DNA from: Chelativorans xinjiangensis
GTDB lineage: Bacteria > Pseudomonadota > Alphaproteobacteria > Rhizobiales > Rhizobiaceae
Length of the DNA stretch: 64,000 bases
Assembly: GCF_009812055.1 (NCBI RefSeq)
Contig: NZ_WQNH01000001.1
Coordinates: forward strand, 186,001-250,000
Reading direction: 5' to 3'
A program made the position numbers and the translations under genes. Positions 35,820 to 58,083 of the stretch are shown one piece after another. Below the pieces are notes generated by a model. The model did not search any database, had not been told where the DNA came from, and worked only from the letters and a program-made list of their open reading frames with translations. Each line of letters starts with the position of its first letter. Position 1 is the first letter of the stretch.

Positions 35820-35921
35820 CGCGTGCTCCGATGGGCTAGGCGATCATGCCGGCAGGTGGCAATGAGGCAAGCAAGGAAGGGTTGGGGGAAGCCGCAGCGG
35901 GCTGCCCCCTGACACGCGTTT

Positions 35922-38295: not shown

Positions 38296-39126
38296 CTATT
38301 CCGCGAGGAGACACCGAACGAGGGGGTGGCGCGGATCCGTGAGACCATCGACGACGGTGAAATGGTGGCGGTCTGGCTCCACCACTGCCGAGGTGATCGC
38401 GCCGAGGCCCGCCCATATGTTTGCAAGCAGCTCGTTCTGGCGCAGGAACTCGGCGCGCTCGCTCCCGCCCGCCCAGCAGGTGATGCGCGCGCCTTCCATC
38501 GGGCGCAGCAGTGCCGGACTTTCGGCCACTGCCTCGGCTTCGTCGATAAGGAGTTCCTGGTTCATGGTCGTGCGCATAAGCGGGCGCAGGTCGTGCACCC
38601 CGGAAATCGAGACGATGCGGCGGACGCGTTCCCAGATTTGAGAGGCGAGCGGCGTGGTGGCTGAGGCCATCCTGCTGGCGAGATGGCCGCCGGCCGAATG
38701 GCCTGTCAGCATCAGCGGGCCCTCGACCATGGCCGCCGCCGCTTCGATTGCCGCGGCGACCTCCTCCACGATACCGCCGATGCGGACCTCCGGGCAGAGC
38801 CTGTAGGAAGGGATCGCGACGGCATAGCCGTTTTCAACGGCGCCTGCGGCAAGATGCGACCAGTAGCTCTTGTCGAACCGCAGCCAATAGCCTCCGTGGA
38901 CATAGACGACGAGGCCCTTGGGCCTTCCAGTGGGAAGGAAGAGATCAAGCCGATTGCGCGGCTTCTCGCCATAGGCGAGATCGAGCTTTGCACGGCCTGC
39001 GGCGACAAGGCTCTCGCGAAAGCTTCGCGCCGGCTCCACCCACGCCTCCGGCCAGCGGTCGCCGCCCGGGATGTTCGGGCCGTTGGCGTAAGCATCGTCC
39101 CAGTCGGTTATCAAGCGCTCGAACAT
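38296..39126 (-). CDS. Alpha/beta hydrolase, probable arylformamidase (kynurenine formamidase)
   Basis: A 276-residue alpha/beta hydrolase with the oxyanion motif VHGGYWLRFDKSYWSHLA (HGG near residue 75) and nucleophile elbow GHSAGGHLA (Ser near 145). The HGGYW and following WSHLA segments resemble arylformamidases of the animal and yeast (AFMID/Bna7) type that hydrolyse N-formylkynurenine to kynurenine. They are unlike the metal-dependent bacterial KynB. It starts behind AAGGAGGAGC. It is divergent from the ligase-kynA operon and shares a promoter region holding the candidate operator. Since the cluster has tryptophan dioxygenase and kynureninase but no KynB, this is the obvious candidate for the middle step. 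Confidence 0.75.
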   Translation of the reverse strand: MFERLITDWDDAYANGPNIPGGDRWPEAWVEPARSFRESLVAAGRAKLDLAYGEKPRNRLDLFLPTGRPKGLVVYVHGGYWLRFDKSYWSHLAAGAVENGYAVAIPSYRLCPEVRIGGIVEEVAAAIEAAAAMVEGPLMLTGHSAGGHLASRMASATTPLASQIWERVRRIVSISGVHDLRPLMRTTMNQELLIDEAEAVAESPALLRPMEGARITCWAGGSERAEFLRQNELLANIWAGLGAITSAVVEPDRHHFTVVDGLTDPRHPLVRCLLAE

Positions 39127-39194
39127 GATGCTCCTCCTTGTTCCCGCATAGAAGCAGGAGGGCAGGAGGCAAAGTCAACCTTCCGGCTAGAAAT

Positions 39195-39243
39195 TTTAGG
39201 CTTGAAGTAAATTGCGGCCGGTGCCATCCTTGATAGGCTTCAA
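39195..39243. promoter_or_regulatory. Candidate operator pair in the divergent promoter of the anthranilate cluster
   Basis: TTTAGGCTTGAA at 39195-39206 is an imperfect palindrome (all four mismatches are transitions). The same 12-mer occurs on the opposite strand in front of the monooxygenase gene (55680-55691). A related sequence TTGATAGGCTTCAA (39230-39243) has 4-bp perfect arms and shares the TAGGCTT core. The sites lie between the arylformamidase-like gene and the ligase gene, 69 and about 160 bases from the two starts. The cluster's MarR protein is the likely binder. Confidence 0.5.
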
Positions 39244-39367
39244 CGAGGATGGGAGACCGCAGTGCCCTTTGCCGTTTCCGCGCCAGTGAAGTGCCGTCTG
39301 CGAGCGCATCTAGCGGGATGCCGGCAAGTCGGTCTCACTGTCTCCGCACCATGAGGGAGGCCACCTG

Positions 39368-40993
39368 ATGCTCGGGCCGACGGCGCATACGGACACCTTC
39401 ACACGCGACAATCTTCCACCGGAGGAGGAGTGGCCGGAATTCCTGCTCGAGGGTTTCGAGTATCCCGAATATCTCAATGCCGCCGTCGAACTGACTGACC
39501 GCATGGTGGAGAAAGGTTTCGGGGACCGCACGGCGTTGATCGGCAACGGCCGCCGTCGCACCTATAAGGAGCTTTCCGACTGGACGAACCGGCTCGCCCA
39601 TGCGCTGGTCGAGAATTACGGTATCAAGCCCGGCAACCGGATTCTCATCCGCTCCGCGAACAACCCGGCCATGGTGGCCTGCTGGCTGGCCGCCACCAAG
39701 GCGGGCGCGGTCGTCGTCAACACCATGCCGATGCTGCGCGCAAGCGAACTGGCCAAGATCATCGACAAGGCGGAGATCGTCCTCGCACTTTGCGACACCC
39801 GGCTGATGGACGAGCTCGTCGCCTGCGCCAAGGACAGCCGGTTCCTCAAACAGGTGGTTGGCTTCGACGGTACGGCGAACCACGACGCGGAATTCGACCG
39901 CATCGCGCTCGACAAGTCCGTTGTCTTTGAGGCCGTGAAAACCGGCCGTGATGACGTCGCCCTCCTCGGTTTCACCTCCGGCACCACGGGCGTGCCGAAG
40001 GCGACCATGCATTTCCACCGCGACCTGCTGGTCATCGCCGACGGCTACGCGAAAGAGATCCTGCGGGTAACGCCTGACGATATCTTCGTCGGCTCCCCTC
40101 CCCTCGCCTTCACTTTCGGCCTTGGCGGGCTTGCCATCTTCCCGCTGCGTTTCGGCGCGGCCGCCACTCTCCTGGAGCAGGCGACGCCCGCCAATATGAT
40201 CGATATCATTGAGACCTATCACGCGACCATCTCCTTTACCGCGCCCACCGCCTACCGCGCCATGCTGAAGGCGATGGACGAAGGCGCGGATCTCTCCTCG
40301 CTCCGGGCGGCGGTTTCGGCGGGGGAAACGTTGCCGGGACCCGTCTTCGAGGAATGGATGAGGAAGACCGGCAAGCCGATCCTCGACGGCATCGGCGCCA
40401 CTGAAATGCTGCACATCTTCATCTCCAACCGGTTCGAGGACCTGAAGCCCGGCTCGACCGGTCGCCCGGTCGGTGGCTACGAGGCGCGCATCGTCGGCGA
40501 GGCCATGAACGAGCTTCCACGCGGCACGCCCGGCAGGCTGGCGGTGCGTGGGCCGACCGGCTGCCGTTACCTCGCCGACGCGCGGCAGCGGGACTATGTG
40601 CGCGACGGCTGGAATATTACGGGCGACACGTTTCTGGAGGACGAGGAAGGCTTCTTCCACTTCGTCGCGCGTTCCGACGACATGATCGTCAGCGCCGGCT
40701 ACAACATCGCCGGTCCCGAGGTGGAGGCGGCGTTGCTGTCCCATGCCGATGTCGCCGAGTGCGCGGTGATCGGTGCGCCCGATGCCGAGCGCGGACAGAT
40801 CGTGGAGGCCCATGTCGTTTTGGTTCAGGGCATTGCGCGCGACAACGTGTGCGTGAAGCGCTTGCAAGACCACGTGAAGGCCACCATCGCGCCCTATAAA
40901 TACCCGCGCTCGGTAAGGTTCGTCGACGCCCTGCCCAAGACACAGACGGGCAAGATCCAGCGGTTCCGGCTGAGGACGGAGAAGACGCCTTGA
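39368..40993 (+). CDS. abmG: 2-aminobenzoate--CoA ligase
   Basis: A 541-residue AMP-forming ligase that would activate anthranilate to 2-aminobenzoyl-CoA. The P-loop [10 protein letters not shown] is at 202-211. The adenylation motifs [11 protein letters not shown] and [29 protein letters not shown] (here spanning the hinge) and the terminal catalytic Lys in [10 protein letters not shown] are present. The N-terminal half resembles benzoate- and 2-aminobenzoate-CoA ligases, and the neighbouring anthraniloyl-CoA monooxygenase fixes the substrate. No signal peptide. The stop overlaps the TTG start of kynA, so activation and tryptophan cleavage are co-translated. The operator motif lies about 160 bases upstream. 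Confidence 0.88.
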
Positions 40994-41826
40994 GCAAACC
41001 ATACGACCCCTCCGAAGAAGGAGCCGAGACGTCCTTCCGGGACCGCATGTCCTACAGCGACTATCTGCACCTGGAGCGGGTGCTCGATGCGCAGGAGCCG
41101 CTCTCTACCGCCCATGACGAGATGCTGTTCATCATCCAGCATCAGACCTCCGAACTGTGGATGAAGCTGGCACTGCACGAGCTGGGCTCGGCCATGCGGA
41201 GGATCCGCGCCGACCAGCTCGAGCCTTCCTTCAAGATGCTGACGCGGGTGGCCCGCATCTTCGAACAGCTCAACAGTGCCTGGGATGTGCTGAGGACGAT
41301 GACGCCCAGCGAGTACACCGAGTTCCGCGATGCGCTCGGCCAGTCCTCGGGCTTTCAGTCCTGGCAATACCGCGCCATCGAGTTCATGGCCGGGAACCGC
41401 AACCCGGCGATGCTGCGCCCCCATACGCACGAGCCTGAACGCATCGCGAAACTGGAGGCGATCCTGGCGGAGCCTTCGCTTTACGACGAAGCGATCCTGC
41501 TTCTTTCGCGCAACGGCTTCGACGTCGGCGCGGATGCGGAGCGGATTGACTGGCGCGAGGCGCGGGCCGAAAGCGAAGAGGTGCTGGAGGCCTGGCGGAC
41601 CATCTACCGCGATCCCCTGCGCTATTGGCAACTCTACGAACTTGCCGAAAAGCTGGTCGACTTCGAGGATTATTTCCGCCGCTGGCGCTTTAATCATGTG
41701 ACGACCGTGGAGCGCATTATCGGCATGAAACGGGGCACCGGCGGCACGTCCGGCGTTTCCTATCTCAAGAAGATGCTGGAGGTTGAACTGTTTCCCGAAC
41801 TCTGGAAAGTTCGCACCAGCCTCTGA
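40990..41826 (+). CDS. kynA: Tryptophan 2,3-dioxygenase
   Basis: A 278-residue haem enzyme that opens the indole ring of L-tryptophan to N-formylkynurenine. Family blocks are [32 protein letters not shown] (His for substrate), RILRTM-like [30 protein letters not shown] (shown in parts), and [24 protein letters not shown] with the haem His. It starts at TTG 40990, overlapping the ligase stop (TTGA). The first in-frame ATG at 41048 would remove an ordinary N-terminal stretch, so TTG is preferred. It supplies the upper part of the tryptophan-to-anthranilate route. Confidence 0.95.
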
Positions 41827-41845
41827 ACCACCAGGGGAAAATAAG

Positions 41846-41869
41846 ATGAAGAATGTTGGAGGGGAATAA
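41846..41869 (+). promoter_or_regulatory. Duplicated translation-start region with seven-codon mini-ORF
   Basis: Upstream of the binding-protein start, a near-copy of its ribosome site and first codons occurs. AGGGGAAAATAAGATGAAGA is followed 25 bases later by the real start within GAGGGGAATAAAATGAAGA. The first ATG (41846) opens a frame of seven codons ending in TAA at 41867-41869, one base before the true ATG at 41871. Reinitiation or translational coupling is possible, or it is a short tandem duplication without function. Confidence 0.5.
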
Positions 41870-41870
41870 A

Positions 41871-43010
41871 ATGAAGAACGTTCTTGCAACCGGCCTCATC
41901 GGGCTGTCGCTGCTCGTATCGGGCCATGCCTATGCCGAGCCGGTGAAGATCGGTGTCATCACCACGCTTTCGGGCGGCGGCGCCGGGCTCGGCATCGACA
42001 TGCGCGATGCCTTCACGCTGGCCATCAAGCAATCCGGCAACAAGGACATCGAACTCGTCATCGAGGACGATGCGCAGAAACCCGAGCTTGCCGTTCAGAT
42101 TGCCGAAAAGATGATCCAGAGCGACAAGGTCGACCTCATGACCGGCATCATCTGGTCGAACCTGGCCATGGCCGTGGTGCCCAATGCGGTCGCGCAGGAT
42201 GTTATCTATCTCTCGCCCAATGCCGGCCCTTCGGCGCTCGCAGGCGCCAACTGCCACCCGAACTATTTCAACGTCGCCTATCAGAACGACAATTTCCACG
42301 AGGCGATGGGGCAATACGCCAACCAGGACTACAAGAACACCTTCATCCTCGCCCCCAACTATCCGGCGGGCAAGGACTCGCTTACCGGCTTCAAGCGTTT
42401 CTACAAAGGCGAACTCGCCGGCGAGGTCTACACGCAGGTCGGGCAGACCGATTATGCGGCCGAGATCGCGCAGATCCGCGCCTCGGGCGCCGACTCCGTC
42501 TTTTTCTTCCTGCCGGGCGGCATGGGCATAGCCTTCATGAAGCAATATGCCCAGTCCGGCGTCGACATTCCGGTGATGGGACCCGGCTTCTCCTTCAGTC
42601 AGGATGTTCTGCCTGCCGTCGGCGATGCCGCACTGGGCGTGAAGAACTCGGCCACGTGGGCGAAAGACCTGGACAACGAGGCCAGCAGGGAATTCGTGGA
42701 AGCCTTCCAGAGCGAGTACAACCGCCTGCCCTCGATCTATGCGGCGCAGAGCTGGGACACGGCGAACCTGATCCTTTCGGCGCTCTCCAAGGCGAGCGTG
42801 CAGGACAAGGAGGCGTTCCGGGCGGCACTGAAGGAAGCGGATTTCGATTCGGTTCGCGGGGAGTTCAAATTCAATACCAACAACCACCCTGTGCAGAACG
42901 TCTATATCCGCGAGGTGGTGAAGGAAGACGACGTGCTCACCAACACGATCGTCGGCACCGCCTTCGAGGACCACAAGGACGCCTACGCCGAACAGTGCAA
43001 CATGCAGTAG
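41871..43010 (+). CDS. Branched-chain-type ABC transporter substrate-binding protein
   Basis: A 379-residue periplasmic binding protein of the Leu/Ile/Val (type I fold) family. A signal peptide runs to about residue 22 (LIGLSLLVSGHAYA), then VKIGVITTLSGGGAGLGIDMRDAF opens the mature domain. The ATG at 41871 is chosen over an upstream in-frame TTG because a strong GGAGGGG site precedes it. The gene sits between kynA and the liv-type permeases, inside a tryptophan/anthranilate catabolic cluster. Its ligand is therefore likely tryptophan, kynurenine, anthranilate or another aromatic carboxylate and not branched-chain amino acids. That is an inference. Confidence 0.88.
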   Translation: MKNVLATGLIGLSLLVSGHAYAEPVKIGVITTLSGGGAGLGIDMRDAFTLAIKQSGNKDIELVIEDDAQKPELAVQIAEKMIQSDKVDLMTGIIWSNLAMAVVPNAVAQDVIYLSPNAGPSALAGANCHPNYFNVAYQNDNFHEAMGQYANQDYKNTFILAPNYPAGKDSLTGFKRFYKGELAGEVYTQVGQTDYAAEIAQIRASGADSVFFFLPGGMGIAFMKQYAQSGVDIPVMGPGFSFSQDVLPAVGDAALGVKNSATWAKDLDNEASREFVEAFQSEYNRLPSIYAAQSWDTANLILSALSKASVQDKEAFRAALKEADFDSVRGEFKFNTNNHPVQNVYIREVVKEDDVLTNTIVGTAFEDHKDAYAEQCNMQ

Positions 43011-43121
43011 ACGGCACAGTTGCCTTCATGCCGCGCCGTCGTGAGTGACGGCGCGGCCACTCCGCCAGCTTGACGCTGAGGAAACAGCGATGCGTCAAAT
43101 CGCAGATCCGGATCGCCCTCC

Positions 43122-44042
43122 TTGTCCACCGCACTCCTGATCGAGCAACTGCTGAACGGACTCCAGCTCGGGGTCATGCTGTTCCTGATGGCAGCGGGGC
43201 TGACGCTCATCTTTGGCGTCATGGGCCTGATCAACCTCGCCCACGGATCGTTCTACATGGCCGGCGCCTTCGCTTGCGCGACCGTCGCTGCCGCCACCGG
43301 CTCCTTCTGGATTGGGCTGATTGCGAGTTTGATCACTGCTGCCGCCGCCGGCGCGATCGTCGAGATGGCCGTCATCCGACGGCTTTACGAACGCGACCAT
43401 CTCGACCAGGTGCTTGCCACCTTCGCGCTGATCCTGATTTTCTCGGAAGGCACGCGCTGGCTGTTCGGCTCCTTTCCGCTCTATCTCGATATCCCTCCCC
43501 TGCTCCAGGGCGCGGTCCCGCTGCCGGGAGGCGGGCAATACCAGCTCTACCGGCTCGCCATCATCGGCGTTGGCATCGTCGTGGCGATCGGGCTCTACCT
43601 GCTCATCTCCCGTACGCGGCTCGGCATGCGCATCCGCGCCGGCGAATCCGACCGCGAGATGATCGCCGCACTCGGCGTCGACATCTCGACGCTCTACACG
43701 GTCGTCTTTGCGCTGGGTGCGGCACTTGCCGGGCTTGCGGGGGCGCTGGTCGGCGCGCTGCAATCGGTGCAGGTCGGTATGGGCGAGCCGGTGCTGATCC
43801 TCGCGTTCGTGGTCATCGTCATCGGGGGCATCGGCTCCATCAAGGGCGCGCTGTTCGGCGCCGTCCTCGTTGGCGTGGTCGATACGATGGGGAGGTTCCT
43901 CCTGCCACAGGCACTCATGCTGGTGCTTCCCCCCTCGCAGACCGCACTCATCAGCGGTGCACTGGCGTCCATGTTGATCTACATCGTCATGGCGCTCATC
44001 CTTGCCTTCCGGCCAACCGGCCTCTTCGCCGCACAGCCATGA
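43122..44042 (+). CDS. livH: Branched-chain-type ABC transporter permease LivH
   Basis: A 306-residue permease with about eight helices and the LivH start LLNGLQLGVMLFLMAAGLTLIFGVMGLINLAHGSFYMAGAF in outline. INLAHG is the family's diagnostic segment. Near residue 172 comes RAGESDREMIAALGVD, the cytoplasmic coupling loop. It starts at TTG 43122, since the upstream ATG at 43090 is in another frame. It overlaps LivM by four bases. It forms the pore with LivM for the binding protein just upstream. Confidence 0.9.
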   Translation: MSTALLIEQLLNGLQLGVMLFLMAAGLTLIFGVMGLINLAHGSFYMAGAFACATVAAATGSFWIGLIASLITAAAAGAIVEMAVIRRLYERDHLDQVLATFALILIFSEGTRWLFGSFPLYLDIPPLLQGAVPLPGGGQYQLYRLAIIGVGIVVAIGLYLLISRTRLGMRIRAGESDREMIAALGVDISTLYTVVFALGAALAGLAGALVGALQSVQVGMGEPVLILAFVVIVIGGIGSIKGALFGAVLVGVVDTMGRFLLPQALMLVLPPSQTALISGALASMLIYIVMALILAFRPTGLFAAQP

Positions 44043-45022
44043 GACAGATCGTAACGCGCGAAGCCATCACCAACGCGGGCCTTGCCCTCCTGCTCCTGGT
44101 GGTGCCGCTTGCGGCTTCCGTCATGGATGAACCCTTCTACGTAACGCTCGCCACGCGCATCACCGTTCTGGCGCTCGCGGCAGTCGGGCTCAACATCGCT
44201 CTCGGGCTCGGTGGTCTGGTCTCTTTCGGCCACGCGGCCTTTTTCGGCCTCGGCGGATACGCCGCCGGCATTCTTGCCACCCATGCCTTCAACGCTCAGC
44301 CGCTTTTCCTCGGCATTCAAGCCACCACCTCCATGCCGGCGATCTGGCTGGTGGCCGTCGTCGCCTGCGGTCTCGTGGCGCTTCCTGTCGGTGCGATAAG
44401 TCTGCGTACCTCCGGCGTGTACTTCATCATGATCACGCTCGCTTTCGCGCAGATGATCTACTACTTCGCCATTTCCTGGCCCGCCTATGGCGGCCAGGAC
44501 GGGCTGTCGATCTATGTCCGGAACACCTTTCCGGGCGCCAACACGGCGCAGCCGCTCCCTTTCTTCCTGATTTGCTACGGGCTGCTTCTTTTGGGGCTTG
44601 CGCTCTTTTGGGCGCTCGGCGGCTCGCGCTTCGGCGCCGCGCTTCACACGGCACGGCAGAACGCAACCCGGCTTGCGGCCGTCGGCATCGCGCCCTTCAA
44701 GATCCGGCTCACGGCCTTTGCCATCTCGGCAATGGTCACCGGGCTAGCCGGCGCGCTTTTTGCCGACCTCAACCGGTTTGCAAGCCCGTCCATGCTCTCC
44801 TGGCATATGTCGGGCGAGTTGATCGTGCTCATCATCCTTGGCGGCAAGGGCCGGCTGTTCGGCCCGGTGGCGGGAGCGATGCTCTATGTGCTCTTCGAAT
44901 ACGCTCTCGGCGGCATCACCGAGCGCTGGCAACTCTTCCTCGGCCTTATCCTTCTCGGTGTCGTGCTCTTCGCGCGTGGCGGGCTCATGGGCCTCGTTGC
45001 GGGAAAGGAGCGATATGGCTGA
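44039..45022 (+). CDS. livM: Branched-chain-type ABC transporter permease LivM
   Basis: A 327-residue permease partner of LivH. Characteristic are GLGGLVSFGHAAFFGLGGYAAG near residue 60 and the coupling loop ARQNATRLAAVGIAPFKIRLTAF near 205. There are about nine helices. Its ATG at 44039 overlaps the LivH stop, and its end overlaps the start of LivG by eight bases. Long upstream frames in the same phase belong to antisense-like shadows of livH and were discarded. It belongs to the aromatic catabolism importer. Confidence 0.9.
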   Translation: MRQIVTREAITNAGLALLLLVVPLAASVMDEPFYVTLATRITVLALAAVGLNIALGLGGLVSFGHAAFFGLGGYAAGILATHAFNAQPLFLGIQATTSMPAIWLVAVVACGLVALPVGAISLRTSGVYFIMITLAFAQMIYYFAISWPAYGGQDGLSIYVRNTFPGANTAQPLPFFLICYGLLLLGLALFWALGGSRFGAALHTARQNATRLAAVGIAPFKIRLTAFAISAMVTGLAGALFADLNRFASPSMLSWHMSGELIVLIILGGKGRLFGPVAGAMLYVLFEYALGGITERWQLFLGLILLGVVLFARGGLMGLVAGKERYG

Positions 45023-45760
45023 GCCGGTCCTCGAAATCCGCGATCTGAGGAAGAGCTTCGGTGCGCTGAAGGCAACCGACGGCGTGAGCCTTCATCTCGT
45101 TTCCGGCGAGATCCACGCCCTTATCGGCCCCAACGGTGCCGGCAAGAGCACGCTCATCCACCAGATCTCCGGCTCGCTGACGCCGGACAGCGGGACGATC
45201 CACTTCCTCGGGCAGGACATGGCAGGCCTCGACATGGCAGCGCGGGCGCAGCTGGGGCTGGCGCGCAGCTTCCAGACCTCCTCGCTGGCGCAGGAATTTT
45301 CCGCGCTGCGCAATGTGATGCTCGCGGTGCAGGCAAGGCAGGGGTCGAGCCTGCGCTTCTTCCGCCCGGTGATGCGCGACAGGAGCCTTGCGGAACCGGC
45401 CATGGCCATGCTGGAGCGCGTCGGCCTTGCGGATCGTGCGCATGTGCCCGCGGAGGAGCTGTCGCATGGCGAGCGCCGGCAGCTTGAGATCGCCATTGCG
45501 CTGGCGCTCGGACCGAAGGCGTTCCTGCTGGACGAGCCGATGGCCGGCATGGGACCGGAGGGCTCGAAGAACCTGACGGGATTCCTCGACGCTTTGCGCC
45601 GGGAAGCGCCAATCCTTCTGGTCGAACACGACATGGATGCGGTGTTCGCGCTCGCCGACCGCGTTTCCGTGCTCGTCTATGGCCGCATCATCGCCACGGG
45701 CAAGGTAGACGAGATCCGCAATGATCCCGAAGTCCGCCGGGCCTATCTCGGAGAACCGGC

Positions 45761-45764
<4 letters not shown>
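45015..45764 (+). CDS. livG: Branched-chain-type ABC transporter ATP-binding protein LivG
   Basis: A 249-residue ATPase with Walker A GPNGAGKST (about residues 37-45), the LivG-typical LGLARSFQTSSLAQEFSALRNVMLA segment, and a signature variant LSHGERRQLEIAIAL. Walker B is AFLLDEPMAGMGPE and the switch is LVEHDMDAVFALAD. The signature LSHGE is the usual LivG form. The ATG at 45015 follows AAAGGAG. It overlaps its neighbours on both sides, so the whole livHMGF set is one transcript. Confidence 0.92.
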
Positions 45765-46447
<683 letters not shown>

Positions 46448-46456
46448 GAGCCCACC

Positions 46457-47704: not shown

Positions 47705-49686
47705 GGGCGCAATCCTTCCTTCGCCACATACATCGGCCCGCCCCTATGTGCGGGAAAGCCGTAGCCGTTGATGATGACGAGATCGATATCGCTCGCCCTT
47801 TCGGCAATGCCTTCGGCCAAAAGGGCATCGCCTTCCGCAGCCATGGCCGCAAGCAGGCGTGATACGATCTCGCCGGAAGAAACCTGCCGTGGAGCGATGC
47901 CCTTGGCCTTCCGGCACGCCTCGATCACGGCGGTTACCTCCGGATCGACGGTACGCTTTCCATCCGGATAGGCGTACCAGCCGCGGCCCGTCTTCTGGCC
48001 GAAACGGCCCATCTCGCAGAGCCGGTCTGCGATCTCGACATAGCGCTGCGAAGGGTCGCGGGTGGCCGCCTGGCGCTTGCGCCGGGCCCAGGCGATCTCG
48101 AGGCCTGCCAGATCGAAGACGGCAAACGGGCCCATGGCGAAACCGTAGTCCTCCATCGCCGCGTCGATCTCCTGTGGCCAAGCGCCGTCCTCGACCAGGA
48201 ACTCGGCCTCACGCCGATAGGCGGAGAAGATGCGGTTGCCGATGAAACCTTCGCAGACGCCGCACACGATGGGCAGTTTGCCGAGCCGGCGCGCGACGGC
48301 GATTCCAGTCGCCAGCACCTCCGGGTTCGTCTTGGCGCAGCGCACGACCTCGACCAGCCGCATCACTTGCGCGGGCGAGAAGAAATGGAGGCCGCAGATG
48401 CGCTCCGGCCGCGATGTCGCCGCCGCGATGGCGTCGGGATCGAGATAGCTTGTGTTGGTGGCGAGAATGGCGTCCGGCCGGACGATCTTGTCCAGCTTCT
48501 CGAAAAGCTTCGTCTTGACATCCAGGTCGTCGAAGACCGCTTCGACCACGAGATCGGCAGCGGCAAGGGCTTCCAGATCGCTGCCGACAGAAAGGCGCTG
48601 AAGGCGCTCGGCCCGGCCCGCCGCATCGATGCGCCCTGACTTTATTGCCCGATCCAAGAGCCCGGCGATCCGATCGAAGCCTTTCTCCGCCGCCTCCGCA
48701 TTCTGCTCGACAACGATGACGCGATAACCCGCATTGAGCGCGGAGACGGCGATGCCGGAGCCCATTAGCCCGCTCCCAACCACGCCGATGGTTTGCACCA
48801 TCCGCGGCTCGACGCCTTCGAGGCCGGGCACTTTCGCTGCCGCGCGCTCGGCGAAGAAGACATGGCGCAATGCTTTCGCCTGGTCGGAATCGCGCAACCG
48901 CAGAAACGTCGCGCGTTCATCGGCGAGCCCCTCCGCAAGGGAACGTTCGCCGGCACGTCTCACAAGGCGCACCGCTTCGGCCGGCGCCGCCCTTCCACGC
49001 GCGCGTGATAGAGCCTTGTCGGCCGCTTCATCAATCACTTGCGGGTCTTCCGCCGGCAAGGCCAATTCGCCCGTCCGGCGCAACGGTTGAGATGCGAGAT
49101 CCCGTGCGGCGGCGACCGCGCCAGCGGCGGGATTGCCTGCCACCACCTGGTCTATGATGCCAAGGGAGAGGGCCTCGCCGGCAGCCACGCTGCGCCCGGC
49201 GGCAATCAGTTCCACCGCCTTGGCGACGCCGACGAGGCGGGGGAGGCGCTGGGTGCCGCCCGCCCCTGGCACAATGCCGAGTTTCACTTCGGGTAGGCCG
49301 AGGGTCGCTGTATCGCTGGCGATACGGCGATGGCAGGCAAGCGCGATTTCGAGACCGCTGCCAAGGGCGGGGCCGTTGATGGCTGCCACGACAGGCTTAC
49401 TGCACTTCTCGATCGCGTCGACAACCTCCGGCAGGATAGGCTCGGTTCCCGGCTGGCCGAACTCCTTGATGTCGGCACCGCCGACAAAGGTCTTGCCTGC
49501 GCCGGTGACGACCACCGCGCGGGCGGCATCCTCAGTGCCGGCATGGCGGATCGCCGCCAGGAGGCCGGAACGCATGTCCGCCGAGGCGGCGTTGACCGGC
49601 GGATTGTCGATGGTGACGACCAGAACGCCGTTCTCCAGCCTTGCCGAAACAGTCTCGGAGAAACGGATCGGTGTCACCTCGCCCAT
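47701..49686 (-). CDS. Enoyl-CoA hydratase / 3-hydroxyacyl-CoA dehydrogenase fusion
   Basis: A 661-residue two-function enzyme. The N-terminal crotonase domain (about 8-190) retains both hydratase glutamates, Glu113 in [13 protein letters not shown] and Glu133 in [14 protein letters not shown]. The NAD domain begins at [11 protein letters not shown] (301-311). The C-terminal dehydrogenase domain has [17 protein letters not shown] and GFIGNRI. It is related to FadJ/FadB but slightly shorter. In this cluster it probably performs beta-oxidation-like hydration and dehydrogenation of the opened ring product from anthraniloyl-CoA. A partner thiolase is not encoded in the window. Confidence 0.88.
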
Positions 49687-49693
49687 GGAAACC

Positions 49694-50089
49694 TTACTCC
49701 GGTACGACGGCCGTCGCCTGGATCTCCACCTTGGCGCGATCTTCCATCAGCGCGACCACCTGAACGACGGCCATGGCGGGATAGTACCAGCCCATCACCT
49801 CGCGGTAGACAACGCCGATCTCCTTGAGATTAGTGAGATATTCGGCTTTGTCGGTAAGATACCAGGTCATGGAGGTGATATGCTCTGGCCGCGCGTCAGC
49901 CTCCGCGAGCACGGCTGCCACGTTGAGGAGCGTCTGCCGTACCTGCGCGACAAGGTCGTCGCTCTCGAACGTGCACTTCTCGTTCCAACCGATCTGACCG
50001 CTGACGAAAACGAGCCTGCCGCGGGCGGCGATGCCGTTTGCATAACCTTTGGGTCTTGCCCATCCCTGGGGTTGCAGAACGCTATGCAT
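49694..50089 (-). CDS. Rid-family (YjgF/YER057c) protein, probable enamine/imine handler
   Basis: A 131-residue Rid-fold protein. Recognisable are [47 protein letters not shown] and [26 protein letters not shown]. By eye the position of the archetypal RidA deaminase Arg105 (in ARLPKD) is Leu in ALMEDR, so this may belong to a non-deaminase Rid subgroup. The start at 50089 is chosen because GAGGAG lies close upstream; a TTG four codons earlier is less likely. YjgF-like genes accompany known anthranilate clusters, and release of ammonia from an amino-cyclohexene intermediate is the plausible role. Confidence 0.85.
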
Positions 50090-50133
50090 GAAACTCCTCA
50101 ATTTGCGAAACCATCAAGAATACACGAGTGGCG

Positions 50134-51282
50134 CTATACCGCGCCCAACACCTGCCTGGCGATCACCACCTTCTGGACGTCGGATGCGCCCTCGTAGATG
50201 CGCAACGCCCGGATCTCGCGATAGAGGCTTTCCACGATGTGTCCGCGGCGGACGCCATCGCCGCCGTGAAGCTGGACGGCACGGTCGATCACACCTTGAG
50301 CGCGGTCCGTGGCGAAGAGTTTCGCCATGGCCGCCTCGCGGGTGACACGGGCAGCACCCATGTCCTTCGTCCAGGCGGCGCGGTAGACGAGAAGTGCCGC
50401 AGCGTCGACGTCCAGCGCCATATCCGCCAGGTGCCCCTGCACCATTTGCAACTCGGCCATTGGCGCGCCGAAGAGCTTCCGCTCGGCCGCCCGCTTCACG
50501 CTCTCATCGAGTGCACGGCGGGCGAAGCCGAGAGCGGCCGCACCCACCGTCGAGCGGAACACGTCGAGCACCGACATGGCAATGCGGAAGCCCTCGCCCG
50601 GCTTGCCGATCATCGCGGAGGCTGGAACACGCGCGCCCTCGAAGGAAAGGCGGGCAATGGGATGCGGCGCAATCACCTCCAGCCGCTCGGCGATTTTCAG
50701 CCCCTGCGTATCGGCGGGCACCAGGAACGTGGAAATGCCCTTGGCGCCCGGCGCCTCGCCGGTGCGTGCGAAGACAACGTAGAGATCGGCGATGCCGCCA
50801 TTGGAGATCCAGGTCTTCTCGCCGGTAAGAACGTAGGAACCGCCGTCGCGTGTCGCGCTCATGTCCATGTTCGCCACATCGGAGCCCGAACGTGGCTCGG
50901 AAAGGGCGAAGGCGGAGATCGCCTCGCCGGCACGGGTCTTGCCGAGCCAGCGTTGCTGCTCCGGCGTCCCGAAGAAGCTGATGGCGCCGGTGCCGAGCCC
51001 TTGCATGGCGAATGCGAAGTCGGCGAGCCCGTCATGGCGAGCCAGGGTCTCACGGGTGATGCAGAGCGTGCGCACGTCGAGGGGCGCGGGATCGGCGGGA
51101 TCGACCGCGGTCGGCTTCAGCCAACCGTCGCGCCCGAGCATCCGCACCAGCTCGTGGCATGCGGCGTCCACATCCGCGTGGTCAACTGGCAAGTTCGCCG
51201 CGCACCAGGCTTCAAGCCGCTCCGCGTATTGGCGGTGACGGTCCTCGAAGAAGGGCCAGGTGAGGAAGCTTTTGTCCGCCAT
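50134..51282 (-). CDS. Acyl-CoA dehydrogenase
   Basis: A 382-residue FAD-dependent dehydrogenase of the acyl-CoA dehydrogenase family. Segments typical of the fold are [24 protein letters not shown] (FAD and substrate contacts), [35 protein letters not shown] and the C-terminal [27 protein letters not shown] with the usual Glu in IYEGAS. The start at 51282 is chosen; longer reading lies in the upstream crotonase gene. Start and upstream stop overlap by one base (TGATG). It likely oxidises the CoA thioester that follows ring reduction or opening. Confidence 0.9.
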
Positions 51283-52100
51283 CAATCGCCCTCGAACACC
51301 GGCTTTTGCTTGGCGACGAAGGCGCGGTAGGCGCGTTCGAAGTCGCGGGTCTGCATGCAGATCGCCTGCGCCTGCGCTTCGGCTTCGATCGCCTGGTCGA
51401 GGCTCATCGACCATTCCTGATTGAGCTGCGTCTTGGTGATGCCGTGCGCGAAGGTCGGGCCGGAGACGATGCGCGCGGCCAGATCGAGGGCTTCCGCCTC
51501 CAATTTGTCGGCGGAGACGAGCCGGTTGTAAAAGCCCCAGCGCTCACCCTCCTCCGCGCTCATCGTTCGGCCGGTATAGAGAAGTTCCGCCGCCCGCCCC
51601 TGGCCGATGATGCGTGGCAGGATCGCACAAGCGCCCATGTCGCAACCGGCAAGGCCAACGCGGGTGAAAAGGAAGGCTGACTTGGCCTCGGGCGTTGCGA
51701 GGCGGATGTCGGAGGCCATGGCGAGGATGGCGCCGGCCCCCACCGCGACGCCGTCCACCGCGGCGATGATCGGCTTGCCGCAATTGAGCATCGCCTTAAC
51801 GAGATCGCCCGTCATGCGGGTGAAGGCCAGGAGTTCCTTCATCTCCATGCCGATCAGCGGGCCGATGATGTCGTGCACGTCGCCGCCGGAGCAGAAATTT
51901 CCGCCGTTCGGCAGAAGCACAACGGCATCGACATCCTCGGCATAGACGAGGTTGCGGAAAGTGTCGCGCAGCTCCGCGTAGGAAGCGAAGGTGAGCGGGT
52001 TCTTCCGCTCCGGCCGATCGAGTCTCACGACCGCGACCCGGCCCTCCATCCGCCAGAGGAAGTGCTTGGGCTCAAGGCCCGCCATCTCGATTGGGGTCAA
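51282..52100 (-). CDS. Crotonase-family protein lacking both hydratase glutamates
   Basis: A 272-residue crotonase-fold enzyme. The oxyanion-hole regions are seen in [15 protein letters not shown] (about 66-80) and [18 protein letters not shown] (114-131). At the two positions where enoyl-CoA hydratases keep catalytic glutamates, it appears to have Ile125 and Phe145, by alignment to the FadJ-type hydratase. A simple hydration mechanism is therefore unlikely. In this anthraniloyl-CoA cluster it could be the ring-opening hydrolase, analogous to 2-ketocyclohexanecarboxyl-CoA hydrolase (BadI-like). Its stop overlaps the acyl-CoA dehydrogenase start, and its own start overlaps the MarR gene end. 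Confidence 0.82.
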
Positions 52101-52573
52101 TGCTCGCCCTCCCAGTTGCTGCGGAATGCGTGGAGCATTTCGGAAAGGTGGTGCACCTCGGCTGTGTCTACGCCACCGAGGAGCTCGGCGATCCAGCGTT
52201 CATGGGCGGCCGCCATCTTCTCGAAGGCTTCCACGCCTGCCGGCGTCAGGCGCACCACGGAGGTGCGCTTGTCCCCGTCGCGCTTGGCGCGTGCCACGTA
52301 GCCGTCGGCCACCAGTCGATCGACGATGCCCGTGACGTTGCCGTTGGAGACCAGCAGGAAGCGCGAAAGGTCGCTCATCAGCATGCCTTCGCGCTCACGG
52401 TGGAGCGCCGACATCACGTCGAAGCGTGGGAGAGTGGTATCGAAGCCGCGTTTGAGCCGTTCGCGCAACTCCCCTTCAACGATGCGCGTGGTGCGCAGCA
52501 TCCTGATCCAGAGGCGCAGGCGCTCCTTGTCGCCCGACCGCGCATCGATTACCGACAGCGGCGCGCTCACCAT
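52097..52573 (-). CDS. MarR-family transcriptional regulator of the anthranilate cluster
   Basis: A 158-residue winged-helix regulator. The DNA-binding region reads [46 protein letters not shown] in outline (about 48-93), and the wing has [16 protein letters not shown]. The HQ/E-type dimer helices flank it. MarR proteins in aromatic-CoA pathways usually repress and are released by the CoA thioester or the acid itself. It is embedded in the operon it probably controls, between the SDR and crotonase genes. A shared 12-bp motif in both operon promoters (39195 and 55680) is the candidate site. Confidence 0.9.
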
Positions 52574-53331
52574 GTCTCACCCCCCGAAACCGATATGGCC
52601 TGGCCGGTGATGGAGGCCGCTCCCGGGCTGCAGAGCCAGAGCACCGCCGAGGCCACCTCCTCCGGCTGAATGAACCTGCCCTGCGGATTGGCCGCCATCA
52701 AGCTCGCGCGCGCCTCCTCCTCCGTGCGTCCCGTCTTCTGCGCAATGCGGGCGACGGATCTGATCAACATCTCCGTCTCAACGAAACTCGGGCAGACGGC
52801 GTTCACCGTGATCTCCGTCTTGGCAAACTCCACCGCGAGCGCGCGCATGAGGCCGACCACCCCGTGCTTGGAGGCAACGTAGGGCGCGACATAACCATAG
52901 CCTTTGAGACCCGCGACTGAGGCGACGAAGATGATGCGTCCCTTCTTCCGCGTGGCCATTCCCTCAAGCGCCGGTTGGACGGTGAGGAAGGCGCCGGTGA
53001 GGTTGATGTCGAGCGTCCTCCTCCAATCTTCAAGCGTCGTCTTCGCGGCAGGCGCGCTGGACGCGATGCCGGCATTGGCGATGACGATGTCGATCGGACC
53101 GCGCGCGGCCTCGGCACCCCGGTAGAGCCGGTCCATCGAGGACTGGTCGGTCACATCGCCGATTGTCGCATGGATATGCGGGCGCTCGCCGGCAACAGCC
53201 TGCAGCGGCTCGATACGCCGGCCGCAGATGGTGACCCGTGCGCCGGCATCGGCCAGCGCCAGTGCGATCGCCTTTCCGACGCCCGAGCCGCCGCCGGTCA
53301 CCAGCGCGTGCGTTCCGACGACCGCGGCCAT
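52567..53331 (-). CDS. Short-chain dehydrogenase/reductase
   Basis: A 254-residue SDR. The cofactor motif is ALVTGGGSGVGKAIALALADAG (TGxxxGxG), followed by NAG in VIANAGIAS. The catalytic Ser is in FVASVAG, Tyr and Lys are in YVASKHG, and the adenine-site Asp is in GDVTD. It is closer to the FabG/3-hydroxyacyl-CoA dehydrogenase group. The ATG at 53331 shares a base with the monooxygenase stop. In the anthranilate route it would reduce or oxidise a ring alcohol/ketone intermediate. Its C-terminus overlaps the MarR gene by seven bases. Confidence 0.9.
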   Translation of the reverse strand: MAAVVGTHALVTGGGSGVGKAIALALADAGARVTICGRRIEPLQAVAGERPHIHATIGDVTDQSSMDRLYRGAEAARGPIDIVIANAGIASSAPAAKTTLEDWRRTLDINLTGAFLTVQPALEGMATRKKGRIIFVASVAGLKGYGYVAPYVASKHGVVGLMRALAVEFAKTEITVNAVCPSFVETEMLIRSVARIAQKTGRTEEEARASLMAANPQGRFIQPEEVASAVLWLCSPGAASITGQAISVSGGETW

Positions 53332-55622
53332 CACACCTTCCCCGGCATGATATCCCGCCGTTCCGCGAGCCGGTAGGCCTGCTCGCGGCCGCGCAGGTAG
53401 GGATCAGGCCATCTGACGTGGCGATCGCCGAGCGCAACGGCGGAATGCAGCGTCCAATAGGGATCCGCAAGGTGCGGCCGCGCAAGGCACACGAGGTCGG
53501 CACGGCCCGCCATCAGGATCGAATTCACATGGTCCGGCTCGTAAATGTTGCCGACCGCCATGGTGGCCATGCCGGTCTCGTTGCGGATGCGGTCCGAGAA
53601 CGGGGTCTGGAACATGCGGCCATAGACGGGCTCTGCCCGAAGCGAAGTCTGACCAGCCGAGACGTCGCAGATGTCGACACCCGCCGCCTGCAGCATGCGG
53701 GCGATCTCCACGGCGTCCTCCGGACGGATGCCTTCTTCGCCCACCCAGTCATTCGCCGAGATGCGCACGGAGATCGGCTTTTCATCCGGCCACACCGCGC
53801 GCACCGCGTGGAACACCTCCAGCGGGTAGCGCATGCGGTTTTCCAGGCTGCCGCCATATTCGTCAGTGCGCCGGTTGGTGAGCGGCGTTATGAACGCCGA
53901 CAGGAGATAGCCGTGCGCCATGTGAAGCTCCAGCATGTCGAAGCCGGCACGGGCGGCCATCTCGGCCGCGGCAACGAAGGCCTCGCGCACCTCGTCCATG
54001 TCTTGGCACGTCATCTCCTTTGGGGTCTGATGGAGGTCGCTCCAGGGGACCGTCGAGGGCGCCAGCAGCGGCCAATTGCCGGAAACGAGCGGCGCTTCGG
54101 AATCCTCCCACGGGACCTGGGTCGATCCCTTCGGGCCGGAATGGCCGATCTGGGCGCAGATCTTTGCCTCGGTCTCACGATGGACGAAATCGACGATCCT
54201 CTTCCAGGCAATTTCGTGCTCGTGCTTGTAGAAGCCGGGGCAACCTGGCGTTATCCGCCCTTCGGGCGTCACGCAGGTCATTTCGATATAGACGAGCCCC
54301 GCCCCGCCCTTGGCGCGCTCGGCATAGTGGACGAAATGCCAGTCGGTCGGGCAGCCGTCGACCGCCTTGTACTGGGCCATGGGCGAGACCACGATGCGGT
54401 TGACGAGCCGCATGTCGCGCAGCCGGAAGGGCGCGAACATTGGCGGGCGGGCGCCATTTACATTGCTGCCTGCCCGGTGCTGGAACCAGGCCTCGGCGCT
54501 TCCCAGCCATTCCGGGTCACGCAGGCGCAGGTTTTCGTGGCTGATGCGCTGCGACCGGGTGAGGAGTGAATAGTTGAACTGAACCGGATCGAGGTGGAGG
54601 TAGCGCTCCACGTCCTCGAACCATTCGAGCGAGTTGCGCGCCGCCGACTGCAGCCTCAGCACTTCCGTGCGGCGGGCATCCTCGTATTTCACGAAGGCAG
54701 CCTCAAGCGTCGGCTCTAAGTGGAGATAGTCCGCCATGGCCACCGCACTTTCGAGTGCAAGCTTTGTGCCCGAGCCGATGGAGAAATGCGCGCTCGCCGC
54801 CGCATCGCCCATGAGCGCCAGGTTCCTGTGCGACCAGCGCGCGCAGAGCACACGGGGGAAACTGATCCAGGCAGAGCCGCGGATGTGGCTGGCGTTGGAC
54901 ATGAGCTCGTGGCCATCGAGATGTGCGGCGAAGATCCTCTCGCAGGTGGCGATGGACTCTTCCTTCGACATCTCGCCGAAGCCGAATTTTTCCCACGTCT
55001 TCTGCGAGCACTCGACGATGAACGTGGCCGTGTCGTTATCGAACTGGTAGGCGTGCGCCCAAACCCAGCCGTGTTCCGTCTCTTCGAAGATGAAGGTGAA
55101 GGCGTCGTCGAATTTCTGGTGTGTGCCGAGCCAGACGAACTTGCACCTGCGGACGTCGATGTCAGGCTGGAAAACATCGGCGAAGACCGTACGCGACTTG
55201 GAGTTCAGGCCGTCGGCAGCGATGACGACGTCATGGCTTTCCATGAAGGGGCGTGGATCGTCGATCTCCGCCTGAAAACGCAGATCGACACCAAGCTCGC
55301 GCGCCCGCTCCTGCAGGAGAACGAGCAGCATCTTGCGGCCGATGCCGCAGAAGCCGTGGCCGGTCGAGACCGTCCGCGTGCCGCGGTAGAGGACGGCGAT
55401 ATCGTCCCAATAGGCGAAGTGCTCGCGGATCGCGGCGGCACTCACGGGATCGTTGGCCGTGAGGTTGGTGAGCGTCTCGTCCGACAGCACGACGCCCCAA
55501 CCGAAGGTGTCGTCCGGGCGATTGCGCTCATAGACGGTGACCTCGTGGCCGGCCTCCCGCAGCTTCATCGAGATCGCAAAGTAAAGGCCGGCCGGACCGC
55601 CTCCCAGAACCGCAACCTTCAT
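53331..55622 (-). CDS. abmA: Anthraniloyl-CoA (2-aminobenzoyl-CoA) monooxygenase/reductase
   Basis: A 763-residue flavoenzyme with two fused halves. The N-terminal part (about 1-380) is an FAD-dependent aromatic hydroxylase. The dinucleotide site is [14 protein letters not shown] (7-20), and the later [20 protein letters not shown] segment resembles salicylyl-CoA/2-aminobenzoyl-CoA hydroxylases. The C-terminal part (from about 395) is an Old Yellow Enzyme-like reductase, with [20 protein letters not shown] and [12 protein letters not shown]. This two-domain layout is the known anthraniloyl-CoA monooxygenase/reductase, which dearomatises the ring. A salicylyl-CoA 5-hydroxylase fusion is the alternative. 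It heads the minus-strand operon; a good promoter with the operator motif precedes it. Confidence 0.9.
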
Positions 55623-55679
55623 CCCACATCCTCACTCTCGGCGAAAGCCTGAGGCAGGATCGCACCTGAGGTGAGATAT

Positions 55680-58053: not shown

Positions 58054-58083
58054 GGGAGTTCCGTTGGGTCGATAGGGGCTTGG

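What the first reader, a model, noticed from the sequence alone, without database searches (positions are those of the whole stretch)
38296..55622. Self-contained tryptophan-to-anthraniloyl-CoA catabolic island with its own importer
Arylformamidase-like hydrolase, tryptophan dioxygenase and kynureninase are interleaved with anthranilate-CoA ligase, anthraniloyl-CoA monooxygenase/reductase, beta-oxidation-like enzymes, a MarR regulator and a five-gene Liv-type transporter. Kynurenine and anthraniloyl-CoA genes are mixed within the same transcripts (ligase and kynA overlap; kynU overlaps the fusion enzyme), so this looks like one pathway and not two neighbours. Anthraniloyl-CoA gene sets are known from Azoarcus. 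Their operonic merger with a whole kynurenine branch and an uptake system is less familiar to me.
Basis: partly seen in the sequence, partly recalled or inferred. Interest (0 to 1): 0.75.

Follow-up and report, generated by a model that had tools for sequence, protein, structure and literature searches.

The report
Tryptophan-to-anthraniloyl-CoA breakdown gene island
A soil bacterium carries, side by side and behind the same DNA switch, the genes that turn tryptophan into anthranilate and those that break anthranilate down as a CoA compound, and the same coupling appears in many related bacteria; each half was known, the coupling less so.

Summary
The window (a Chelativorans-like genome) carries an intact set: α/β-hydrolase formamidase candidate, aryl-CoA ligase, tryptophan dioxygenase, five Liv-type transporter genes, kynureninase, a hydratase/dehydrogenase fusion, a Rid protein, acyl-CoA dehydrogenase, crotonase, MarR, SDR and the fused flavin monooxygenase/reductase (abmO). 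It is not a local oddity. In 80 related kynureninase loci, ligase and kynA abut in 49, and 79 of 79 searchable genomes behind them have abmO somewhere (78 nearly full length). The strongest new evidence is a palindrome, TTYANGCTTGAA, at the promoters of both operons: upstream of ligase in 52 of 53 relatives and of abmO in 28 of 28. With its adjoining promoter sequence it occurs only twice in the 5.7-Mb genome. So 'one pathway' is well supported, as one regulon even where the genes lie apart. Two corrections: the Liv importer also travels with abmO and ligase where no kyn gene is near, so anthranilate is its likelier cargo; and the pathway is already named in print, its downstream steps being the open part. 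The linked Rid protein has Met where RidA has its catalytic Arg, which makes it a testable candidate for the unassigned deamination step. No activity was measured.

The parts
38296..39126 (-). alpha/beta-hydrolase, candidate N-formylkynurenine formamidase (kynB-like role)
   Evidence: Pfam BD-FAE/Abhydrolase_3; NCBIfam HaHSL over cut-off; PDB 2pbl 3e-77 and kynurenine formamidase 4e11 2e-15, with HGGYW and GHSAG motifs aligned; a homologue in 73 of 80 kynU loci
39195..39230 (+). operator/promoter element TTTAGGCTTGAA-N13-GGTGC-N-ATCCT upstream of the ligase operon, in the region divergent with the hydrolase
   Evidence: palindrome found upstream of ligase in 52 of 53 relatives; one of only two sites in the own genome
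39368..40993 (+). aryl-CoA ligase, most likely anthranilate-CoA ligase
   Evidence: TIGR02262 just below cut-off; best PDB match 4wv3 anthranilate-CoA ligase
40990..41826 (+). kynA, tryptophan 2,3-dioxygenase, TTG start overlapping the ligase stop by 4 nt
   Evidence: TIGR03036 over cut-off; the only gene matching PF03301 in the own genome, in two pieces; junction conserved
41853..43010 (+). Liv-type periplasmic substrate-binding protein
   Evidence: Peripla_BP_6 5e-79; closest solved chain 4evq
43122..44042 (+). livH-type permease (start codon uncertain)
   Evidence: BPD_transp_2 4e-36; homologue annotated branched-chain amino acid ABC permease in L093, L094 and L095
44039..45022 (+). livM-type permease
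   Evidence: BPD_transp_2 2e-30; UrtC/LivM models below cut-off
45015..45764 (+). livG-type ATPase (listed ORF 44838-45764; likelier ATG at 45015)
   Evidence: ABC_tran and BCA_ABC_TP_C; translation
45761..46447 (+). livF-type ATPase
   Evidence: ABC_tran; UrtE/LivF models below cut-off
46457..47704 (-). kynU, kynureninase, last gene of the abm-type operon, overlapping the preceding gene by 4 nt
   Evidence: TIGR01814 over cut-off; KYNU_C
47701..49686 (-). fused enoyl-CoA hydratase/3-hydroxyacyl-CoA dehydrogenase (FadB/FadJ-like)
   Evidence: ECH_1 + 3HCDH_N + 3HCDH; FadJ/FadB models below cut-off
49694..50101 (-). Rid-family protein with Met110 in place of the RidA catalytic Arg
   Evidence: PF01042; Met in all 40 abm-linked tblastn matches that reach this position, 3 further matches end before it
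50134..51282 (-). acyl-CoA dehydrogenase (listed ORF runs to 51414; ATG at 51282 overlaps the crotonase stop)
   Evidence: Acyl-CoA_dh_1/M/N; translation
51282..52100 (-). crotonase-family protein (PRK08258), candidate ring-opening or hydratase step
   Evidence: NF006107 over cut-off; PDB 3g64 3e-65
52097..52573 (-). MarR-family regulator, proposed to bind the shared operator
   Evidence: MarR/MarR_2; MarR and operator both present in 64 of 74 abmO loci
52567..53334 (-). short-chain dehydrogenase/reductase
   Evidence: adh_short 9e-57
53331..55622 (-). fused flavin monooxygenase/old-yellow-enzyme reductase, candidate 2-aminobenzoyl-CoA monooxygenase/reductase (called abmO here)
   Evidence: FAD_binding_3 + Oxidored_FMN; PRK08255 over cut-off; the only full-length match in the genome, seven others cover the reductase half only
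55656..55691 (-). operator/promoter element TTTAGGCTTGAA-N13-GGTGC-N-ATCCT upstream of abmO
   Evidence: palindrome conserved upstream of abmO

Best explanation
A single catabolic regulon for tryptophan through anthraniloyl-CoA. Steps inferred from family membership: KynA opens tryptophan to N-formylkynurenine, the alpha/beta hydrolase removes the formyl group, KynU splits kynurenine into alanine and anthranilate, the ligase makes anthraniloyl-CoA, and the fused flavoenzyme hydroxylates and reduces it to 2-amino-5-oxocyclohex-1-ene-carboxyl-CoA. Weaker inferences: the Rid protein and/or water removes the enamine nitrogen; the SDR, crotonase, acyl-CoA dehydrogenase and hydratase/dehydrogenase fusion open the ring and run beta-oxidation, with a thiolase supplied from elsewhere. 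The Liv system most likely imports anthranilate or a similar aryl acid. The operon's MarR protein most likely represses both operons through the palindrome at each promoter and is released by a pathway CoA thioester (inferred; no binding shown). Shown here: the gene set, the overlaps, the shared element, its conservation and the co-occurrence of the two gene sets.
For: Families over curated cut-offs for kynA, kynU and the fused monooxygenase/reductase. Ligase closest to an anthranilate-CoA ligase of known structure. Ligase-kynA junction in 49 of 80 kynU loci: 34 with a 4-nt overlap, 1 with a longer overlap, 14 with the start within 5 nt of the stop. The element TTTAGGCTTGAA-N13-GGTGC-N-ATCCT occurs at both promoters and nowhere else in the window (2 matches; 0 in 100 shuffles) or in the 5.69-Mb genome at up to 3 mismatches (2 sites; reversed control 0). 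In the kynU loci the palindrome lies upstream of ligase in 52 of 53 (the one miss, L005, has only 170 nt upstream of the gene), upstream of abmO in 28 of 28 (27 exact, one with 1 mismatch), but 0 of 49 upstream of kynA, 0 of 28 upstream of the binding-protein gene and 1 of 80 upstream of kynU; dinucleotide shuffles below 1% in these sets. All 79 searchable genomes behind the 80 kynU loci hold abmO. Drawn genomes: order 37 of 42 kynU genomes have abmO against 61 of 199 overall; class 36 of 51 kynA genomes against 53 of 289; phylum 27 of 51 kynU genomes against 33 of 249. Arthrobacter Rue61a: anthraniloyl-CoA found in anthranilate-grown cells and a C7H8O4-CoA found only there (passages of PMC3534580).
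Against: No activity, expression or binding data exist for this strain in anything I saw. NCBIfam names the hydrolase a lipase and the fused flavoenzyme a salicylyl-CoA 5-hydroxylase. Five of 42 kynU genomes in the order draw lack abmO, and 24 of 51 in the phylum draw; 24 of 61 and 6 of 33 abmO genomes lack kynU. The palindrome is less regular outside the close group: at abmO 10 of 29 class-level genomes exactly and 17 of 29 at up to 1 mismatch; at ligase only 7 of 24 hand-picked regions at up to 1 mismatch (1 exact) and 0 of 5 plasmid records, where the ligase mostly sits inside the abm operon. Most genomes with both gene sets keep them apart (within 12 kb in 6 of 36 class-level and 6 of 37 order-level genomes, my reading of the coordinates; many assemblies are fragmented). 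7 of 74 abmO loci have the operator but no detected MarR, 1 has the MarR but no operator. The Fisher tests ignore shared ancestry. Cupriavidus metallidurans CH34 has abm and kyn genes yet did not grow on anthranilate (passages of PMC8879955).
Confidence: 0.85

Rival explanations
1. Two independent neighbours: an anthranilate or salicylate CoA-catabolism cluster that happens to lie beside kynurenine genes, with no functional link.
For: In most genomes with both sets abmO and kyn genes are far apart or on different contigs. Of 46 examined abmO loci outside the first set, 34 have no kynA or kynU in the stretch read, one of these with the hydrolase; 20 of the 46 were taken from genomes already known to have kynU elsewhere.
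Against: 4-nt gene overlaps mix the two sets in both operons; the ligase-kynA junction is conserved in 49 loci; the same palindrome sits at both promoters; 79 of 79 searchable genomes behind the kynU loci hold abmO; several different merged layouts exist in other lineages.
Confidence: 0.05
2. The CoA part serves salicylate (salicylyl-CoA 5-hydroxylation, gentisate route) and not anthranilate.
For: NCBIfam name of the fused enzyme; in Cupriavidus taiwanensis a 56% homologue stands beside cupin and fumarylacetoacetate-hydrolase family genes, as a gentisate route would.
Against: In the window it is in one operon with kynU, whose product is anthranilate. The best solved relative of the ligase is an anthranilate-CoA ligase. 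The island carries Rid, SDR and beta-oxidation genes and no gentisate dioxygenase or cupin family was among the Pfam matches of its proteins. The C. taiwanensis locus (L096), unlike this one, has no MarR match and no operator upstream of abmO.
Confidence: 0.08
3. The importer brings in tryptophan or kynurenine and not anthranilate.
For: It is co-directional with ligase and kynA in the window; among 80 kynU loci it is present in 28, always together with kynA.
Against: In the Mesorhizobium locus read (L014) kynU has a different ABC transporter next to it. 25 of 80 kynU loci have the ligase without Liv.
Confidence: 0.25
4. The shared element is a general promoter or a site for a global regulator and not a pathway-specific operator.
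For: It overlaps a plausible -35 region (TTGAA, about 17 nt before GATCCT/CATCCT; my reading). Some loci have the site without a detected MarR (7 of 74).
Against: Only two sites for the 22 specified bases at up to 3 mismatches in 5.69 Mb. The 12-nt core is palindromic and kept while flanks change, and is found at abmO in other orders. The core alone was not scanned genome-wide.
Confidence: 0.12

Closest known systems
Aerobic 2-aminobenzoyl-CoA (abm) gene cluster of Azoarcus evansii (Schuhle et al. 2001)
   Same: Ligase, fused monooxygenase/reductase, beta-oxidation enzymes; by my recollection of the abstract also a MarR-like regulator, a substrate-binding protein and a 'translation inhibitor' (Rid) gene. 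The paper itself is not held; a review that cites it was seen in passages (PMC4539516).
   Different: kynA, kynU and a formamidase candidate are built into or beside the operons here, and a full Liv transporter is present.
Kynurenine (anthranilate) branch of tryptophan catabolism (kynA, kynB, kynU)
   Same: kynA and kynU over equivalog cut-offs.
   Different: Formamidase candidate is an alpha/beta hydrolase and not the metal-dependent KynB family at this locus; anthranilate is handed to a CoA ligase in the same gene set.
Anthranilate CoA-thioester pathway of Arthrobacter sp. Rue61a (PMC3534580, passages)
   Same: Anthranilate-CoA ligase plus monooxygenase/reductase homologue; metabolites fit.
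   Different: There anthranilate comes from quinaldine; 'kynuren' and 'tryptophan' do not occur in the held main text.
Thalassospira marina pCSC3H3 and Ruegeria pomeroyi DSS-3 megaplasmid abm clusters (public records)
   Same: kynU-kynA inside, or kynA plus alpha/beta hydrolase beside, the same abm gene order.
   Different: Different positions of the kyn genes; no Liv genes in the 30-kb stretches read.

Membership tests
Aerobic 2-aminobenzoyl-CoA (abm) cluster | Fused flavin monooxygenase/OYE reductase | tested here: met
   Both domains, PRK08255 over cut-off
Aerobic 2-aminobenzoyl-CoA (abm) cluster | Anthranilate-CoA ligase in the gene set | tested here: met
   Ligase present, in the neighbouring operon; closest solved relative is an anthranilate-CoA ligase; substrate not assayed
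Aerobic 2-aminobenzoyl-CoA (abm) cluster | Beta-oxidation-type enzymes, MarR and Rid genes in the operon | tested here: met
Aerobic 2-aminobenzoyl-CoA (abm) cluster | Conversion of anthraniloyl-CoA to 2-amino-5-oxocyclohexene-carboxyl-CoA | not testable with these tools
   needs enzyme assay
Kynurenine pathway to anthranilate | Tryptophan 2,3-dioxygenase and kynureninase | tested here: met
   TIGR03036 and TIGR01814 over cut-off
Kynurenine pathway to anthranilate | N-formylkynurenine formamidase | tested here: inconclusive
   alpha/beta hydrolase related to Drosophila kynurenine formamidase (2e-15), with a homologue in 73 of 80 kynU loci, but NCBIfam calls it a lipase
Metal-dependent KynB formamidase (PF04199) | Cyclase-family domain at the locus | tested here: not met
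   One PF04199 match in the genome, on another contig (C97); its context was not examined
Liv/HAAT ABC importer | Substrate-binding protein, two permeases, two ATPases in one run | tested here: met
   41853-46447
RidA imine deaminase | Catalytic Arg (E. coli Arg105) | tested here: not met
   Met at this place in all 40 abm-linked matches that reach it, 3 more end before it; Tyr20 in 40 of 40 and Glu126 in 39 of 39 ungapped rows of the alignment of matches at 45% identity or more. PMC4433059 passages: subfamilies without Arg presumably have other functions

The most novel reading that the evidence does not exclude
In Alphaproteobacteria the anthraniloyl-CoA route is the usual outlet of the kynurenine pathway, held together as one MarR regulon (idealised palindrome AATTTYAAGCTTRAAATT) even where the genes are scattered. 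Its Arg-less Rid protein (Arg replaced by Met) is the enzyme that hydrolyses the ring enamine of 2-amino-5-oxocyclohexene-carboxyl-CoA to the dione: a substrate without a free carboxylate would not need the Arg. That would give this Rid type a metabolic function and fill the first open step of the pathway.
Probability: 0.25. Interest if true: 0.6.

Novelty: new variant of a known kind. Interest (0 to 1): 0.42.

Why it matters
[quoted passage not shown] This locus and its relatives give a defined gene list, a regulator candidate and an operator that can be used to recognise the route in genomes, where current names (salicylyl-CoA hydroxylase, hormone-sensitive lipase, benzoate-CoA ligase, RidA) hide it. 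It also points to one small linked protein, the Met-type Rid, as a candidate for an unassigned step.

Tried and rejected
Minus-strand reading frames over ligase and kynA (39335-41002, 40894-41889) gave no family match and were dropped. RidA as a canonical imine deaminase: dropped because the Arg is missing. Operator at kynA or the Liv binding-protein gene of the kynU loci: not found (0 of 49, 0 of 28); at kynU 1 of 80. Ligand of the closest solved substrate-binding proteins (4evq, 4evr): I recall benzoate-type ligands, but one paper search gave only an unrelated hit, so this is not used. Crotonase active-site comparison, an own-genome search for anthranilate dioxygenase, a genome-wide scan of the 12-nt core alone and structure prediction were not done.

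Literature searched for the merger: anthraniloyl-CoA + kynureninase + operon (1 paper, listing only); 2-aminobenzoyl-CoA + tryptophan + gene cluster (6 papers; passages of PMC4539516 and PMC8879955 seen, the other four listing only); aminobenzoyl-CoA + kynurenine (1 paper, passages seen); anthraniloyl-CoA monooxygenase + tryptophan (3 papers; one section and passages of PMC9007349 seen, the others listing only); aminobenzoyl-CoA monooxygenase (5 papers; passages of PMC3534580 and PMC4539516 seen, the others listing only); tryptophan dioxygenase + anthranilate + Rhizobiales + MarR (3 papers, listing only); kynA/abmG/ligase/kynureninase (410 papers, 20 listed, swamped by kynurenic acid). Nothing that I saw describes the merged operon or the operator; no paper was read whole, and subscription journals are mostly absent.

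Selection to note: the 80 kynU loci are the best 80 of 265, so they are close relatives. The 40 regions were chosen by hand: the first 20 from genomes of the kynU loci, ten of the second 20 because kyn genes were already known to be near. Hand-copied genome lists were used for the Fisher tests. Identity floors were set by me in the counts.

Full report
What is there. The window lies in a 5.69-Mb genome of 118 contigs whose kynureninase is 94% identical to that of Chelativorans alearense. On the plus strand: ligase, kynA, substrate-binding protein, livH, livM, livG and livF. On the minus strand, read from 55622 downwards: abmO (the fused monooxygenase/reductase), SDR, MarR, crotonase, acyl-CoA dehydrogenase, a Rid protein, an enoyl-CoA hydratase/3-hydroxyacyl-CoA dehydrogenase fusion and kynU. 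A separate minus-strand alpha/beta hydrolase faces the ligase across a 241-nt gap. abmO has one full-length copy in the genome and tryptophan dioxygenase one gene.

Observation against chance. kynA, kynU and abmO exceed their curated family cut-offs; the ligase falls 3.5 bits short of the benzoate-CoA ligase subfamily cut-off and its best solved relative is an anthranilate-CoA ligase. The comparison set is the best 80 of 265 kynureninase loci in named genomes; by their titles nearly all are rhizobial (Hyphomicrobiales) genera, one is titled only 'Bacterium'. Of the 80, 53 carry the ligase and 49 carry ligase and kynA. In those 49 the kynA start overlaps the ligase stop by 4 nt in 34, by more in one, and lies within 5 nt after it in 14. 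The full combination of hydrolase, ligase, kynA, Liv and abmO within 21 kb occurs in 24 of 80; 22 of 80 have only the hydrolase with kynU. The exact Chelativorans arrangement, kynU directly after the hydratase/dehydrogenase fusion of the abm operon, is rarer: L003, L004 and L006.

One regulon. The 36-nt element TTTAGGCTTGAA-N13-GGTGC-N-ATCCT stands upstream of the ligase (39195-39230) and, facing the other way, upstream of abmO (55656-55691). It has two matches in the window with none in 100 shuffles, and the same two are the only matches in the whole genome at up to 3 mismatches; the reversed control gives none. Its core is a near-palindrome; the majority sequence around it is AATTTTAAGCTTGAAAT at abmO (63 sites) and ATTTTAGGCTTGAAA at ligase (53 sites). 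In the kynU loci the core TTYANGCTTGAA lies within 250 nt upstream of ligase in 52 of 53 that have it; the exception, L005, has only 170 nt upstream. It lies upstream of abmO in 28 of 28 (27 exact). It is absent upstream of kynA (0 of 49) and the substrate-binding gene (0 of 28) and nearly so upstream of kynU (1 of 80); shuffled regions give less than 1% in these sets. Away from this group the site at abmO is found, at up to 1 mismatch, in 36 of 40 hand-picked regions, 17 of 29 class-level genomes (10 exactly) and 5 of 6 plasmid records. At ligase it is found there in only 7 of 24 and 0 of 5, where the ligase mostly lies inside the abm operon. In Mesorhizobium, where abmO lies elsewhere in the genome, both the ligase-kynA operon and abmO still carry it (for instance L013 with L129, L014 with L130). 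A MarR gene of this type and the operator are both present in 64 of 74 abmO loci, the operator alone in 7, the MarR alone in 1, neither in 2. That the MarR binds it is inference.

Co-occurrence. Of the 80 genomes behind the kynU loci 79 could be searched and all 79 have abmO with E below 1e-150; in 78 the match covers at least 748 of 763 residues, in one it covers 1-591. This is not because abmO is universal: in a draw of 199 genomes of the order, 61 have abmO and 42 have kynU, 37 both (Fisher p about 1e-18). In 289 genomes of the class 53 have abmO and 51 have a kynA match, 36 both, or 34 of 46 after dropping five weak partial kynA matches. In 249 genomes of the phylum 33 have abmO, 51 kynU, 27 both. 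These tests ignore shared ancestry. In most genomes the two sets lie apart; by the listed coordinates they are within 12 kb in 6 of 36 class-level and 6 of 37 order-level genomes that have both.

Merged differently elsewhere. In Thalassospira marina kynU and kynA sit inside the abm operon after the ligase; in Ruegeria pomeroyi kynA and an alpha/beta hydrolase face abmO. Ten of these regions were chosen because proximity was already known, so they show variety and not frequency. Several different layouts of the same partners argue for repeated selection for linkage.

Mechanism. From established family functions: tryptophan to N-formylkynurenine (KynA), to kynurenine (alpha/beta hydrolase, inferred), to anthranilate plus alanine (KynU), to anthraniloyl-CoA (ligase), to 2-amino-5-oxocyclohex-1-ene-carboxyl-CoA (fused enzyme). 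The last two steps follow from work on Azoarcus and Arthrobacter, seen here only as passages; the Azoarcus paper is not held and what I say of its gene list is recalled. In anthranilate-grown Arthrobacter a CoA ester of C7H8O4, possibly cyclohexanedione-carboxyl-CoA, was found and not in other cultures, which fits deamination right after the fused enzyme. The Rid protein is a candidate: it keeps the Tyr and Glu of RidA but has Met where RidA has its essential Arg, in all 40 abm-linked matches that reach that position (3 more end before it). A Rid-family study places Arg-less members among those that presumably have other functions than imine hydrolysis (passages). Since that Arg holds a substrate carboxylate, a CoA thioester would not need it; this is my inference. 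Ring opening and beta-oxidation by the crotonase, acyl-CoA dehydrogenase, SDR and the hydratase/dehydrogenase fusion are inferred; no thiolase model was matched in the island.

The importer. In the one Mesorhizobium locus read in detail (L014) kynU is next to a different ABC transporter with an ABC_sub_bind-type binding protein, and a GntR-type gene. Against this, Liv genes in the kynU loci are always with kynA (28 of 28). Anthranilate or a related aryl acid is therefore the likelier cargo, against the reading of an importer for the whole tryptophan route.

Names that mislead. NCBIfam calls abmO a salicylyl-CoA 5-hydroxylase and the alpha/beta hydrolase a hormone-sensitive lipase. A salicylate role is possible for some homologues: in Cupriavidus taiwanensis a 56% homologue lies beside cupin and fumarylacetoacetate hydrolase genes, without a MarR match or an operator upstream. 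Genes alone do not prove growth: C. metallidurans with abm and kyn genes did not grow on anthranilate (passages).

Known or new. Each half is known, and the combined route is named in print: GapMind's authors list tryptophan degradation via anthraniloyl-CoA monooxygenase/reductase among pathways left out for lack of knowledge. My searches showed me no description of the merged operons or of the shared operator, within an open-licence library, from listings and passages only. I rate it a new variant of a known kind: real, widespread, well ordered and useful, but not a new type of system.

Noticed in passing
49694-50101; abm-linked homologues in other loci: A Rid-family protein tied to abmO has Met in place of the RidA catalytic Arg in all 40 matches that reach the position, with Tyr and Glu kept.
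   Followed up: partly
L014 6304-9982: In this Mesorhizobium locus kynU is preceded by a different ABC transporter (ABC_sub_bind binding protein, ATPase, BPD_transp_2 permease) with a GntR/FCD regulator on the other strand; the window lacks it at this place.
   Followed up: partly
L129 3504 and 4397, and like positions in L130, L131, L134, L135, L147: Extra palindromes close to the operator core occur about 1-2 kb beyond the Rid gene of Mesorhizobium abm clusters, next to ORFs that were not run against any family library; possible further regulon members.
   Followed up: no
window 53331-55622 versus L007, L015 and similar loci: Two abmO subtypes, about 77-97% and about 53-57% identical to the window copy, have the same palindrome core at their promoters.
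   Followed up: partly
56506-59094: Sulfatase next to a formylglycine-generating (FGE-sulfatase) gene on the same strand.
   Followed up: no
33855-36866: DctM-type TRAP permease (654 aa) beside an NMT1_3-family binding protein, a TAXI-TRAP-like pair.
   Followed up: no
own genome contig C97, 91830-92327: A single metal-dependent cyclase-family (PF04199) match, the family that by recollection includes KynB formamidase, away from the island.
   Followed up: no
37468-38277: Ion-channel protein (Ion_trans_2) with a weak C-terminal zinc-ribbon match, between the TRAP genes and the island.
   Followed up: no
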